DNA of 64,000 nt from Allorhodopirellula solitaria (GTDB lineage Bacteria; Planctomycetota; Planctomycetia; Pirellulales; Pirellulaceae): the NCBI RefSeq assembly GCF_007859855.1, contig NZ_SJPK01000003.1, positions 503,182 through 567,181 of the forward strand, read 5' to 3'. Below are positions 38,480 through 42,040 of this stretch, one piece after another. The notes beneath the pieces are model-generated. The model made no database searches. It saw only the letters and a program-made list of their open reading frames with translations, and was not told the DNA's origin. The first letter of the stretch is position 1, and the number at the start of each line of letters is the position of its first letter. Position numbers and translations under genes: made by a program.

Positions 38480-38508
38480 TTGACCCCGCGGAGGTGCATT
38501 GCTATAGT
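38480..38508 (+). promoter_or_regulatory. Sigma70-type promoter of the GntR-ABC operon
   Basis: TTGACC (38480-38485) and TATAGT (38503-38508) are separated by exactly 17 bp, close to the vegetative consensus. Transcription would start about 38514-38516, at or one to three bases before the ATG at 38517, so the message would be leaderless or almost so. No Shine-Dalgarno sequence precedes this ATG. Confidence 0.65.
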
Positions 38509-38515
38509 AATGCAC
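38494..38515 (+). promoter_or_regulatory. Palindromic operator overlapping the -10 box
   Basis: gtgcattgctatagtaatgcac is a 22-bp inverted repeat with a single mismatched pair (20 of 22 bases symmetric). It covers the -10 element and ends two bases before the regulator's ATG. This is the expected position for autorepression by the YtrA/GntR-type regulator encoded immediately downstream. Confidence 0.65.
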
Positions 38516-38516
38516 A

Positions 38517-38918
38517 ATGTCACTTCCCCCTCAGCTATTCCGTGTTGCGACTTCGTCGGGTGTGCCGATCTTTCGGCAGATCATGGACCAGGTCCGTGCG
38601 TTGATCGCCTGCGGCGACTTAGCGGCCGGCGAGATGTTGCCGAGCACCCGTGAATTGGCCCGGGAACTGGAGGTGAACATGATGACCGTGTCGAAGGCCT
38701 ACTCGCGGCTGGAGGCCGATGGTGTGGTCGAGCGTGTTCGTGGGCTGGGGATGCGCGTGGTCGAGATTCGCGATACCCGATCAGCCACTGAGCGCAAACG
38801 TGATTTCCAGGAACTGGTCGCCCCGGCGCTGCATCGGGCGCGCCAACTCGGCCTCTCCGACGACCAGATTCTGTCCGTTGTCAAAAAGGCACTCAAGGAT
38901 TCATCCCATGAACAATGA
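38517..38918 (+). CDS. GntR-family transcriptional regulator, YtrA subfamily
   Basis: The 133-residue protein has a winged helix (PIFRQIMDQVRALIACGDL, then MLPSTRELARELEVN and TVSKAYSRLEADGVVE) and a short C-terminal helical part (LVAPALHRARQLGLSDDQIL) rather than a large effector domain. This short form is the YtrA subfamily, which usually represses an adjacent ABC transporter operon. It starts at ATG 38517 without a leader. Its last 11 bp overlap the ATPase gene. It most likely binds the palindrome at 38494-38515 and responds to envelope stress or an antibiotic, which is inferred from the subfamily. Confidence 0.85.
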   Translation: MSLPPQLFRVATSSGVPIFRQIMDQVRALIACGDLAAGEMLPSTRELARELEVNMMTVSKAYSRLEADGVVERVRGLGMRVVEIRDTRSATERKRDFQELVAPALHRARQLGLSDDQILSVVKKALKDSSHEQ

Positions 38919-39792
38919 CATTATCCGAACGTCTGGATTGCGGAAGCACTTTGGTAAGAACGAGGTGCTTCGCGGTGTGGATCTAGCGATCCCCCGAGGC
39001 GCTGTTGTCGGCCTGCTCGGGAGCAATGGCGCCGGCAAGAGCACTCTGATCAAGTGTCTCCTCGGACTGCTAAAAATCTCCGCGGGCACGGCCACTCTGA
39101 TGGGCGAAGACCCGTGGAACCTATCGGCCCATACCAAATCTCGCATTGGCTACGTGCCCCAGGTCGTGCATCTCTATCCCTGGATGAAGGTTCGCCAAGT
39201 GATCGAGTATACCGGCGCGTTCTATGCGAATTGGGATCACGCCTGGTGCCGCGAACTCCTCGATCAATGGGACCTCGACGGGGCCGCGTGGATCCGCAAT
39301 CTGTCCACCGGCCAACTGCAGCGACTCGGATTGATCCTCGGGATGGGACACCGCCCCGATCTCTACCTACTCGATGAACCCGCTGCGAGCCTTGATCCGA
39401 GCGGCCGTCGTAGCTTGTTGCGATCGCTACTAGAAATTACCGAAGATCGCGAGCACAGCATCCTATTCTCAACCCACATCACCTCTGACCTGGAGCGGAT
39501 CGCCTCGCATGTGGCGATCATGGGGAATGGCGTGATCGACTACTTCGGTGAACTGGATGAATTGAAGGATAGTGTGAAACGGATTCGCGTGCATTCGCCC
39601 GTCGATTTACCGCCGGACTTCAGCGTACCAGGTGCTCTACGGACTGAAATCAATGGCGACTCCGCCATCGTCGCTGTCGCGGCAGTCAACGATGAGGTGA
39701 TCGATGGTATTCGCGATCGTTGGGATGCGTCCGTCGATGTCGAGGACCTCAATCTCGAGGACATTTTCCTGGAGCTTCACGATGCTCAGTAA
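38908..39792 (+). CDS. ABC transporter ATP-binding protein
   Basis: The 294-residue ATPase has Walker A GSNGAGKST, the Q-loop region IGYVPQVVHLYPWM, signature LSTGQLQRLGL and Walker B LYLLDEPAASLDPS, followed by the switch His in FSTHITSD. A C-terminal domain of about 80 residues after the core (KRIRVHSPVDLPPDF) resembles those of YtrB/YxlF-type ATPases. True start ATG 38908, 11 bp inside the regulator gene; the open frame extends 63 codons upstream only as a shadow of that gene. It powers the membrane subunit encoded next, with which it overlaps by 11 bp. Confidence 0.9.
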   Translation: MNNDIIRTSGLRKHFGKNEVLRGVDLAIPRGAVVGLLGSNGAGKSTLIKCLLGLLKISAGTATLMGEDPWNLSAHTKSRIGYVPQVVHLYPWMKVRQVIEYTGAFYANWDHAWCRELLDQWDLDGAAWIRNLSTGQLQRLGLILGMGHRPDLYLLDEPAASLDPSGRRSLLRSLLEITEDREHSILFSTHITSDLERIASHVAIMGNGVIDYFGELDELKDSVKRIRVHSPVDLPPDFSVPGALRTEINGDSAIVAVAAVNDEVIDGIRDRWDASVDVEDLNLEDIFLELHDAQ

Positions 39793-42040
39793 ATCCGCAC
39801 TCCGTCAAATTTCGGGGATTTCCAAGACCTACCTGATGCGTCCACTGATGCTCTGCGCGCTACTGATCTTGGGGATCGGATGTGCCATTTTCTGCTTCTC
39901 ATCTCGCTCACTCCGATTTCGCGATTCATACTCAACACCTTTTGATCAGAATGCGAGCGATACTTTTCACGACGCCCAAGCGTTTGTGCGTTGGTCTGAG
40001 GACGGGACCGTCCATCCCGAAATCACTGCGATCGATTTCACGCGTATGGGATCGGCGATCAGAACAAAGCCCAACGATCTGGGGCCGCGACAAGCCGAGG
40101 TGCTCCCCTTCGGCGACCTTGAGCAGACGCTCGCTCAGTTCCCCAATTTGGCGAAGGTTCAGTTTGATAGGGACCAGTTGACTCAAGTTGCACCGACGAC
40201 GCTCGCCGCCCTGACGAGTTTACGAGCGATTTCGGTACTCGATGTAAAGGTAACCGCTGCACACATTGCTGCCTTGTCACAGGTCCCTTCGCTGGAGTGG
40301 ATCTCGCTGCAAACGATCGATTTACCTGCATCCTTGGAGCCGCTCTCCACGCTCCCAAACTTGAGTTCGGTGTGCATCTCCAATGGACCGTTATCGATGT
40401 CCAACGGCCCAATGGCCAGCCCCTACCGCCCCGAAACGCTGGTCGAACTCAACGCCCTGCCATCGCTCAGGGAATTGATCCTGCGGCCACAGTACCTACC
40501 GGGACTAGGCTATTTCGCGGGTAGCAAGACGCCCGATCCTGCCTGTGATCCGGTGCTGAAGGAAAACTGCCGTGAAGTGTTCGCAGACAGTCAGACGCTG
40601 CAGCGACTCTGGCTAGGATCCAATCAAAGCGACGCCGAACGCAATCAACTCGCAGTGGTCGCCAAAACGCTGCCCCACGTCCGCGTGCGACCGGCAACCT
40701 ACGATAGCAGGAAGGTGCTTGAGTCGCGGATGGCCGGTGGCATTTTGATGTTTGCGACGATGGTGATCATGCTGCAATTGACGAGTCAGTTCTCTGGGCC
40801 GTCGGCGCAGTTGATCCCTCGTTTCGCTCCGGTTCATCTCGGGTTTTTCGCGGCGTTCATCACGATCGCGACGTGTGCCTATGCCCTCGCAATATCCGGC
40901 CGGGACCTTTCCTTGTTACCGGCACTGGCAACATTCGCATCTTGCGTTGCGGTCGTTGCGATCTTACATGCCATGTGGAGCGTCGTGGGGATGACGGGGC
41001 GCCAGTACGCATATTGGCTTCCTGCGTTGATTGTGGTGTGCGTGATGTATCACCCCATCGCCATGAACTTCGCACCACCCTGGTGGAGCGCGATTCTGGA
41101 CCAGTTTTTGATGGGGGTGCACCCAGTGGTCGCGATGCTATTGCTGGCGACGGCAGCACTCGTGTTGGCGGGCTGCCTGCTGCTGTTCTCTTGGCAGCAC
41201 CGGTTCTGGGCCGAGCATGCCATCGCACCGGCCATGACGGTTGGCGATCTCGGTGCGCGGATGTCGAGTTTGGCGTGGAACCGACGCGACGATCGCAAGA
41301 GTGCCGCCCAGATAGGACGATGGAATCGAAGACTGCAAGACACACTGGCGCAGCCGCGAGCGACACACCGGTGGATTGCACGGATGTGGCGGCTGGGAAA
41401 CTCACCTGCCTATATCGGTGCGATCATGATCATCGTTGCGATCACTTTCTCGTTCGGTTCCTTTTTTCGCGTCAATGGCGCGTCCGCGATGGACCACATG
41501 ATGGTCCATCACAGCGTCTTGATGCTGCTCGCGCTACCCATGTTACTTATCGCAATGCAGTGTAGCGGGCGTCGCGATACGCTCGCTCGAGATATCTTGT
41601 ATCCCGTCGCACGAGAGCGGTGGATAGGCAGCGTCTTCCTGGCAGTGTGGACACAGCTGGGGTCCCTGTTGGCGTTGGCATTCATCATTGCCAACCTCCA
41701 AATCGGATTTCTGATGCAGGTGCCGACACCTTCGCATGTGTTGAGAGGATTAGTGGCTGCGGGCGCACTGAGCGTATTGGGGACGGGAGTCATCCTATCG
41801 GTCACCCTCCATCGCGGCATTGCCTGGGCAATCGCTCTCGGTCTGGTGGGGCTGATTTCGACGATTTGCGTCACCATGATCATCGTCGATACTGGATTGG
41901 GACCCTCCGGCGCAGCGGCTGAGTCAGTTCGCCAGGCTCTGCATCACCCTGCCGTACTGCCAGGGATCTGGATTGTCGCTGGCGTCATCTTTTCGCTCGC
42001 CTACCGACAGTGGCAACGCACCGAGTTCGCATGCGTCTGA
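39782..42040 (+). CDS. ABC transporter membrane protein with inserted leucine-rich-repeat-like domain
   Basis: Start ATG 39782, 11 bp inside the ATPase gene. The 752-residue product has one helix at residues 18-38 (LMLCALLILGIGCAIFCF), then an extracytoplasmic stretch of about 280 residues, then roughly eleven helices from residue 320 onward. The outer stretch has repeated leucine-rich units: LEQTLAQFPNLAKVQF, LAALTSLRAISVLDV, LSQVPSLEWISLQ, LSTLPNLSSVCIS, LNALPSLRELILR. This pattern is LRR-like and not a normal part of ABC-2 membrane proteins. The later half resembles ABC-2-type permeases. It is probably a sensor-coupled exporter or a resistance transporter; the substrate is unknown. Confidence 0.75.
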   Translation: MLSKSALRQISGISKTYLMRPLMLCALLILGIGCAIFCFSSRSLRFRDSYSTPFDQNASDTFHDAQAFVRWSEDGTVHPEITAIDFTRMGSAIRTKPNDLGPRQAEVLPFGDLEQTLAQFPNLAKVQFDRDQLTQVAPTTLAALTSLRAISVLDVKVTAAHIAALSQVPSLEWISLQTIDLPASLEPLSTLPNLSSVCISNGPLSMSNGPMASPYRPETLVELNALPSLRELILRPQYLPGLGYFAGSKTPDPACDPVLKENCREVFADSQTLQRLWLGSNQSDAERNQLAVVAKTLPHVRVRPATYDSRKVLESRMAGGILMFATMVIMLQLTSQFSGPSAQLIPRFAPVHLGFFAAFITIATCAYALAISGRDLSLLPALATFASCVAVVAILHAMWSVVGMTGRQYAYWLPALIVVCVMYHPIAMNFAPPWWSAILDQFLMGVHPVVAMLLLATAALVLAGCLLLFSWQHRFWAEHAIAPAMTVGDLGARMSSLAWNRRDDRKSAAQIGRWNRRLQDTLAQPRATHRWIARMWRLGNSPAYIGAIMIIVAITFSFGSFFRVNGASAMDHMMVHHSVLMLLALPMLLIAMQCSGRRDTLARDILYPVARERWIGSVFLAVWTQLGSLLALAFIIANLQIGFLMQVPTPSHVLRGLVAAGALSVLGTGVILSVTLHRGIAWAIALGLVGLISTICVTMIIVDTGLGPSGAAAESVRQALHHPAVLPGIWIVAGVIFSLAYRQWQRTEFACV

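What the first reader, a model, noticed from the sequence alone, without database searches (positions are those of the whole stretch)
39782..42040. ABC membrane subunit carrying an extracytoplasmic LRR-like domain
Between its first helix and the remaining helices the protein has five to six leucine-rich units in about 200 residues. LRR domains are not part of known YtrA-linked ABC transporters. The operon (GntR regulator, ATPase, LRR-permease, each overlapping by 11 bp) may be a new type of sensing exporter that recognises a peptide or protein ligand outside the membrane.
Basis: partly seen in the sequence, partly recalled or inferred. Interest (0 to 1): 0.7.

Follow-up and report, generated by a model that had tools for sequence, protein, structure and literature searches.

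The report
ABC exporter with leucine-rich-repeat ectodomain
A three-gene bacterial operon from planctomycetes encodes a membrane pump, probably repressed by its own regulator, whose membrane subunit carries a leucine-rich-repeat domain, a fold often used to bind proteins or peptides, inserted after its first membrane helix; related planctomycete pumps lack that domain.

Summary
The 752-aa permease (39782-42040) carries a leucine-rich-repeat (LRR) solenoid (residues ~83-306) between TM1 and TM2. Alone it is below Pfam cut-offs, but a profile of 29 relatives matches 465 PDB sequences at E<=1, the 60 listed being LRR proteins by name or recall (best 8.5e-34); 30 relatives without the region match none. 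AlphaFold2 gives strand-helix repeats, pLDDT 84-95 in 10 of 12 blocks of 121-240.

The set is a YtrA-type GntR regulator, an ABC ATPase and an ABC-2/type-V-like permease. I found 40 distinct operons with a long insert (39 with gntR) and 80 with a plain 410-516-aa permease (70 with gntR); 30 of 34 proteobacterial plain permeases are too divergent to match my profiles. Long types were seen only in Planctomycetota. Both forms usually share a YtrA-like palindrome. Long types are not one clade (AU p 0.00036), so the insert was gained or lost more than once.

Best reading: an autorepressed exporter whose LRR docks or captures a protein or peptide; it is more conserved than the membrane part in 8 of 10 chosen pairs. 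Ligand, cargo and direction are untested. New variant of a known kind.

The parts
38480..38508 (+). Sigma-70-like promoter TTGACC-17-TATAGT
   Evidence: 10 of 12 matches, 1 found, 0.0 expected in shuffles; a consensus match only
38494..38515 (.). 22-bp palindrome GTGCATTGCTATAGTAATGCAC, probable YtrA-type operator, covering the -10 box and ending one base before the gntR start codon
   Evidence: only site in the window at up to 3 mismatches (chance 0.02); same type of site before gntR in 34 of 34 scored LRR-type loci at >=15 of 17 positions; the only perfect match to the pattern in the genome (one other site with 1 mismatch)
38517..38918 (+). YtrA-subfamily GntR regulator, 133 aa
   Evidence: (PF00392 64.2 bits)
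38908..39792 (+). ABC ATPase, 294 aa, with Walker A, Q loop, LSTGQ signature, Walker B and H loop
   Evidence: (PF00005 91.5 bits)
39782..42040 (+). ABC permease with LRR domain, 752 aa
39845..39901 (+). TM1, residues 22-40, after a helix at 4-19
   Evidence: positive charge before TM1
40028..40699 (+). LRR domain, residues 83-306
40484..40567 (+). Loop of the LRR domain, residues 235-262 (RPQYLPG..YFAGS.TPDP..DP..K.N), conserved in L002, L078, L115 and L116, less in L129; 240-251 have low model confidence
40706..42037 (+). Permease core, residues 309-752, homologous to planctomycete plain permeases
   Evidence: hhalign probability 99.7, E 2.6e-26 (residues 318-752)

Best explanation
A self-contained three-gene unit. 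A YtrA-type GntR dimer represses its own operon by binding a palindrome over the -10 box (inferred from sequence). When repression is lifted, two ATPases and one fused-dimer permease of about 12 helices (ABC-2/type V kind) would form an exporter. In this version an LRR solenoid stands in place of the short loop between TM1 and TM2 and would lie over the outer face of the pump. I think it most likely serves as a docking or capture surface for a conserved extracytoplasmic protein or peptide that the pump releases, extracts or works on, comparable in position to the ectodomains of ABCA exporters and in role to NosD on NosFY (both comparisons recalled). Shown by computation: gene set, LRR fold, insertion site, insert-free relatives, operator-like palindrome, intact ATPase motifs. 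Inferred: outside location, export direction, stoichiometry, docking. Unknown: the ligand.
For: LRR fold: AlphaFold2 mean pLDDT 80.1, pTM 0.73, eight strands alternating with helices. Foldseek: most of the 50 PDB hits listed (of 451) are LRR proteins by title or recall (SKP2, internalin InlF, TLR9); the others include ABC permease NosY (probability 1.00, TMt 0.56, E 0.035) and 8k1p_A, a mycobacterial efflux pump (probability 1.00, TMt 0.48, E 0.11). Insert: long-profile residues 318-752 align with plain permeases from residue 53 on. Lengths are bimodal: 35 complete long (688-791 aa), 80 plain (410-516 aa). A profile of 12 ATPases is nearest to ABCA transporters and Rv1218c among solved structures. 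Topology: mean net charge +2.8 before TM1 and +0.65 in the 15 residues after it; K+R 14.7% in the central loop, 9.6% in the LRR (n=31). The LRR is more conserved than the membrane part in 8 of 10 chosen pairs. Apart from the three genes and frames overlapping them, the commonest neighbour family occurs in 5 of 17 loci.
Against: No ligand, cargo or direction of transport is known. Foldseek found nothing at E<=0.001. 4 of 18 long permeases scanned singly give no LRR family, so some long inserts may be degenerate or different. Conservation runs the other way in 2 of 10 pairs. The model rests on 29 sequences and is unsure at 103-105, 240-251 and 482-490. The outside location rests on charge bias and fold class, not on a measurement.
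Confidence: 0.6

Rival explanations
1. Sensing transporter (first reader, extended): the LRR binds an extracellular peptide and the transporter's state is relayed to the GntR repressor, so the pump is both sensor and effector.
For: In C. difficile, ClnAB contributes to the response of YtrA-type ClnR to LL-37; PmtR is released by PSM peptides. LRRs often bind proteins or peptides (recalled).
Against: Plain relatives mostly keep the same regulator type and palindrome without an LRR. The GntR protein has no membrane part. The LRR is more conserved than the membrane part in 8 of 10 chosen pairs, unlike a receptor that tracks changing ligands.
Confidence: 0.2
2. Defence pump against envelope-active peptides or lipid II-binding antibiotics: the LRR captures the attacker at the membrane and the pump expels it.
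For: The B. subtilis ytr operon is induced by compounds that bind lipid-linked cell-wall precursors; its operator AGTGTA-13bp-TACACT resembles the one here.
Against: The ytr operon has a larger gene set; [quoted passage not shown] a conserved LRR fits a constant partner better than varied attackers.
Confidence: 0.2
3. Structural insert: the LRR stabilises the outer gate or the subunit assembly and binds nothing specific.
For: Related pumps exist without it, so it is dispensable for the core.
Against: Where present it is more conserved than the core in 8 of 10 chosen pairs, with a strongly conserved loop at 235-262 among close relatives.
Confidence: 0.15

Closest known systems
YtrA/YtrBCDEF of Bacillus subtilis
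   Same: YtrA-subfamily repressor early in an ABC operon; operator AGTGTA-13bp-TACACT much like AGTGYA-N12-TRCACT here. Newer work proposes two separate transporters, YtrB2CD and YtrE2F2; YtrB2CD would be the nearest in layout.
   Different: Two ATPases, two separate permeases and a MacB-like YtrF in the operon; one ATPase and one fused permease here, plus an LRR.
ClnRAB (C. difficile) and PmtR/PmtABCD (S. aureus)
   Same: YtrA-type regulator with an ABC transporter, linked to amphipathic peptides. ClnRAB has the same three-gene order. The window ATPase's best NCBIfam hit is PmtA (146.6 bits, below its cut-off of 350).
   Different: No LRR in the passages read; Pmt has two ATPases and two permeases (recalled).
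Rv1217c-Rv1218c and NosFY, type V ABC exporters
   Same: Fold of the permease core (that 8k1p_A is Rv1217c is inferred from its partner Rv1218c) and relatedness of the ATPase.
   Different: No LRR (recalled); NosFY works with a separate NosD subunit (entry titles; role recalled).
ABCA-family lipid exporters
   Same: Nearest ATPases among solved structures; ectodomain between TM1 and TM2 (recalled).
   Different: Their ectodomains are not LRRs and occur in both halves (recalled); here only the first half has one.

Membership tests
YtrA subfamily of GntR regulators | GntR winged helix with a very small C-terminal domain | tested here: met
   133 aa, PF00392 64.2 bits over residues 20-81
YtrA subfamily of GntR regulators | Encoded at the head of an operon with an ABC transporter | tested here: met
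   GntR gene beside the ATPase in 39 of 40 distinct LRR-type operons; the other contig is cut
YtrA subfamily of GntR regulators | Long (about 24-bp) palindrome with distant half sites | tested here: met
   definition from passages of PMC6746942 and PMC8060467
YtrA subfamily of GntR regulators | Binds that site and represses | not testable with these tools
   needs EMSA or reporter
YtrBCDEF-type operon | Two ATPases, YtrC/YtrD permeases, MacB-like YtrF | tested here: not met
   three-gene set; no further family in more than 5 of 17 loci
PmtABCD/PmtR | Passes the NCBIfam equivalog cut-offs | tested here: not met
   PmtA 146.6 of 350 bits; PmtR 64.6 of 200
Type V (ABC-2/ABCA-like) exporter | NosY-like permease fold, here as two fused halves | tested here: met
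   (probability 1.00, TMt 0.56 and 0.48, but E 0.035 and 0.11)
Type V (ABC-2/ABCA-like) exporter | Passes a Pfam ABC-2 permease cut-off | tested here: not met
   window protein: no such family; L116 ABC2_membrane_2 19.6 of 27.2 bits, L078 ABC2_membrane_5 16.6 of 25. A missing Pfam match does not speak against the fold.
Type V (ABC-2/ABCA-like) exporter | Exports or extrudes substrate | not testable with these tools
   none
Leucine-rich repeat domain | Passes a curated LRR cut-off | tested here: inconclusive
   window protein not (12.2 of 27 bits); relatives L154 and L159 yes, 2 of 18 scanned singly
Leucine-rich repeat domain | Solenoid of strand-turn-helix units of about 24 residues | tested here: met
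   between strands 125 and 301 the spacings are 24, 24, 23, 35, 44 and 26 residues

The most novel reading that the evidence does not exclude
A class of receptor-exporter chimeras: an LRR binding domain was placed more than once at the same outer loop of one ABC exporter family in planctomycetes, so that the pump itself recognises a specific protein or peptide partner outside the membrane and acts on it with ATP, without a separate binding protein.
Probability: 0.35. Interest if true: 0.8.

Novelty: new variant of a known kind. Interest (0 to 1): 0.6.

Why it matters
I know of no ABC membrane subunit with a built-in LRR, and three searches of the held papers listed none. Planctomycetes hold related pumps with and without the LRR under the same type of operator, a natural experiment: swapping or deleting the LRR would show what an ectodomain adds to such an exporter. 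It would also give a handle on what planctomycetes use LRRs for.

Tried and rejected
Rejected: chance leucine richness. Not favoured: anti-phage defence; PADLOC gave nothing for the permease; the ATPase hit 13 models (best mad3, 80.9 bits, best stretch 129-207, read as general ATPase similarity) and the regulator 2 weakly. Rejected: a fourth conserved operon gene. Led nowhere: first genome-contig scan with the permease alone, no relative confirmed; first 4-row structure, mean pLDDT 48.6; permease-core tree, too divergent to decide (6 changes); viral fold library, mostly giant-virus LRR proteins but also a phage tail protein, none at E<=0.001. A first ATPase tree missed rows because my Walker A pattern was too strict (L109-L112, L084, L087, L089 and probably L169); one search includes them and replaces it (3 changes then, 4 now).

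Rows dropped and limits: 'LRR-type' or 'long' means a loop of at least 220 residues after TM1 by hydropathy (L149 added by eye); the LRR itself was not tested in every one. Alignment A3 uses 29 of the 31 complete long permeases of the first set (near-copies L111 and L119 left out), A4 30 of 31 plain ones (L082 left out, start uncertain). Of 58 ATPase matches I read 55 (not G654, G555, G629). One search left out 10 long-branch plain rows of 85, all Pseudomonadota and L186. One search used the 116 loci of the first tree and could not score 20; 9 of its 348 random control stretches reached >=15, some of which may contain the operator itself. 31 of 80 plain permeases (30 proteobacterial, 1 unassigned) match neither of my permease profiles, so their kinship rests on ATPase, size and, in part, gene order. 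Strict motif patterns matched Walker A in 36, Q loop 29, signature 36, Walker B 33 and H loop 40 of 40; the window's Walker B missed only because the pattern was narrow. The 10 pairs were chosen by me from different lineages.

Full report
What was checked. The permease ORF starts at 39782 and ends at 42040 (752 aa). It overlaps the ATPase gene by 11 bp, and the ATPase gene overlaps the GntR gene by 11 bp. A search of the genome finds no second copy of the permease; a profile search adds one LRR-only match elsewhere. The genome is in the same family as Blastopirellula marina DSM 3645 and Roseiconus nitratireducens: genomes G508 and G755 of family f1 have contigs equal in length to those named records, and the permeases agree over the first 150 residues compared.

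The LRR is real. For the single protein, Pfam gives only LRR_8 at 12.2 bits, E 0.15, below the cut-off of 27. With relatives the case is clear. LRR_14 was found in 10 of 29 long permeases at E<=0.01 and no LRR family in 30 of 30 plain ones. Of 18 long permeases scanned singly at E<=0.05, 14 gave an LRR family, 4 did not (L128, L093, L118, L113), and L154 and L159 pass Pfam cut-offs. A profile of the 29 matches 465 distinct PDB sequences at E<=1; the 60 listed are LRR proteins by name or recall, such as plant receptor kinases, Leptospira LRR proteins, internalins and TLRs. The plain profile matches none. Repeats inflate such whole-sequence scores, so the contrast matters more than the E-value. 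AlphaFold2 from 29 sequences (mean pLDDT 80.1, pTM 0.73) shows strands starting at 83, 125, 149, 173, 196, 231, 275 and 301, alternating with helices; blocks between 121 and 200 lie at 85-95, the loop 241-250 at 41. Foldseek lists mainly LRR proteins and ABC permeases, none at E<=0.001.

Where the insert sits. Among 396 genomes of the order, 56 hold a close ATPase (58 matches at E<=1e-75); among 392 of the phylum, 22 do (23 matches at E<=1e-70). I read 55 of the 58 and all 23, 75 distinct loci. Of these 75, 31 have a complete long permease with a loop of at least 220 residues after TM1, 4 a cut or broken one, 31 a plain permease, and 9 are unclear or lack it. All 15 are in Planctomycetota (15 of 36); of the other 44 loci, including one of unassigned phylum, none is long, 38 are plain and 6 unclear. 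Duplicates removed by the first 150 permease residues, there are 40 long and 80 plain operons; near-copies remain. gntR was found in 39 of 40 and 70 of 80. hhalign aligns residues 318-752 of the long profile with planctomycete plain permeases from residue 53 on (probability 99.7, E 2.6e-26), so the LRR permease is the plain permease plus a domain after TM1. Outside the phylum the link is looser: only 4 of 34 proteobacterial plain permeases match my profiles; single loci titled Acidobacteria, Krumholzibacteriota and Omnitrophota do match.

History. On an ATPase tree of 75 rows the long state changes 4 times (none of 500 shuffles as low; well-supported branches force at least 2), and holding the 40 long rows together is rejected (AU p 0.000357). 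L154 and L159, with the most canonical repeats, group with plain L084, L087 and L089 (94/72) inside a well-supported, otherwise plain group (100/98). L131, L133 and L188 are plain among long relatives, but the backbone there is weak (43/72). The data do not say which changes are gains. Of 12 other genomes of the genus, only G007 has a full-length relative (52% identity); G008 has a weak LRR-only match.

Regulation. A palindrome at 38494-38515 ends one base before the gntR start codon and covers the -10 box of a TTGACC-17-TATAGT promoter. It is the only perfect match to the pattern in the genome. The same type of site occurs before gntR in 34 of 34 scored long loci at >=15 of 17 positions and in 54 of 62 scored plain loci (20 of 116 not scored). 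It resembles the B. subtilis YtrA operator AGTGTA-13bp-TACACT (passage in PMC8060467) and the typical 24-bp YtrA motif (passage in PMC6746942). The regulator's second-best structural relative is 6sbs (E 1.8e-14, 121 aa), which I take to be YtrA of Sulfolobus (recalled; the length fits).

Mechanism. The window's ATPase motifs are intact. A profile of 12 ATPases is nearest to ABCA transporters and to Rv1218c among solved structures. The permease core resembles NosY and the membrane part of a mycobacterial efflux pump. Charge bias puts the N terminus and central loop inside and the LRR outside. In 8 of 10 chosen pairs the LRR is more conserved than the membrane part; the other two run the other way (88 against 90, 49 against 56). 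A loop at 235-262 is strongly conserved between the window and L002, L078, L115 and L116, less in L129. This fits binding of a constant partner better than recognition of varied ligands. Since most plain operons keep the same type of regulator and palindrome, the LRR is not needed for the regulatory layout. I therefore favour docking or capture in an exporter, and rank sensing, peptide defence and a purely structural role below it.

Literature. YtrA-linked ABC systems are tied to peptides in two cases: PmtR/Pmt with PSMs (passages of PMC5080381) and ClnRAB with LL-37 (passages of PMC6117091). The ytr operon responds to compounds that bind lipid-linked cell-wall precursors (passages of PMC12772383). 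No paper describing an LRR in an ABC permease stood out in three searches (2, 0 and 9 papers listed, none opened). The library lacks most subscription papers, so this is weak evidence of novelty.

On rereading I counted gntR and permease matches among plain operons and scanned ten more long permeases.

Noticed in passing
38503-38517: If the -10 box at 38503-38508 is used, transcription would begin about where gntR starts (ATG 38517), so the operon mRNA would be nearly leaderless, or gntR starts further in. L002 has the same distance from palindrome to the regulator's conserved motif.
   Followed up: no
L115, L116, L129 (ATPase genes): ATPases of 240-253 aa lack the roughly 50-residue accessory part near the C terminus that the window's 294-aa ATPase has; some plain operons seem to have short ATPases too.
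   Followed up: no
L109, L110, L112 (ATPase genes): In the Blastopirellula-like group the Walker A motif reads GTNAAGKT instead of the usual GxxGxGKT.
   Followed up: partly
L234 5535-7023 (minus strand), next to the LRR-type operon of G049: A second ORF of 496 aa next to the LRR permease fell into the same blast cluster as the permeases, possibly a tandem relative. G049 also has a separate plain operon (L106).
   Followed up: no
L105 1894-3528: The permease ORF seems to lose its frame after about residue 385, with a low-hydrophobicity tail; the permease ORF of L098 ends early too.
   Followed up: no
G054:C63 163175-163615 (L015): An LRR-like match in a planctomycete genome contains one in-frame TAG.
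   Followed up: no
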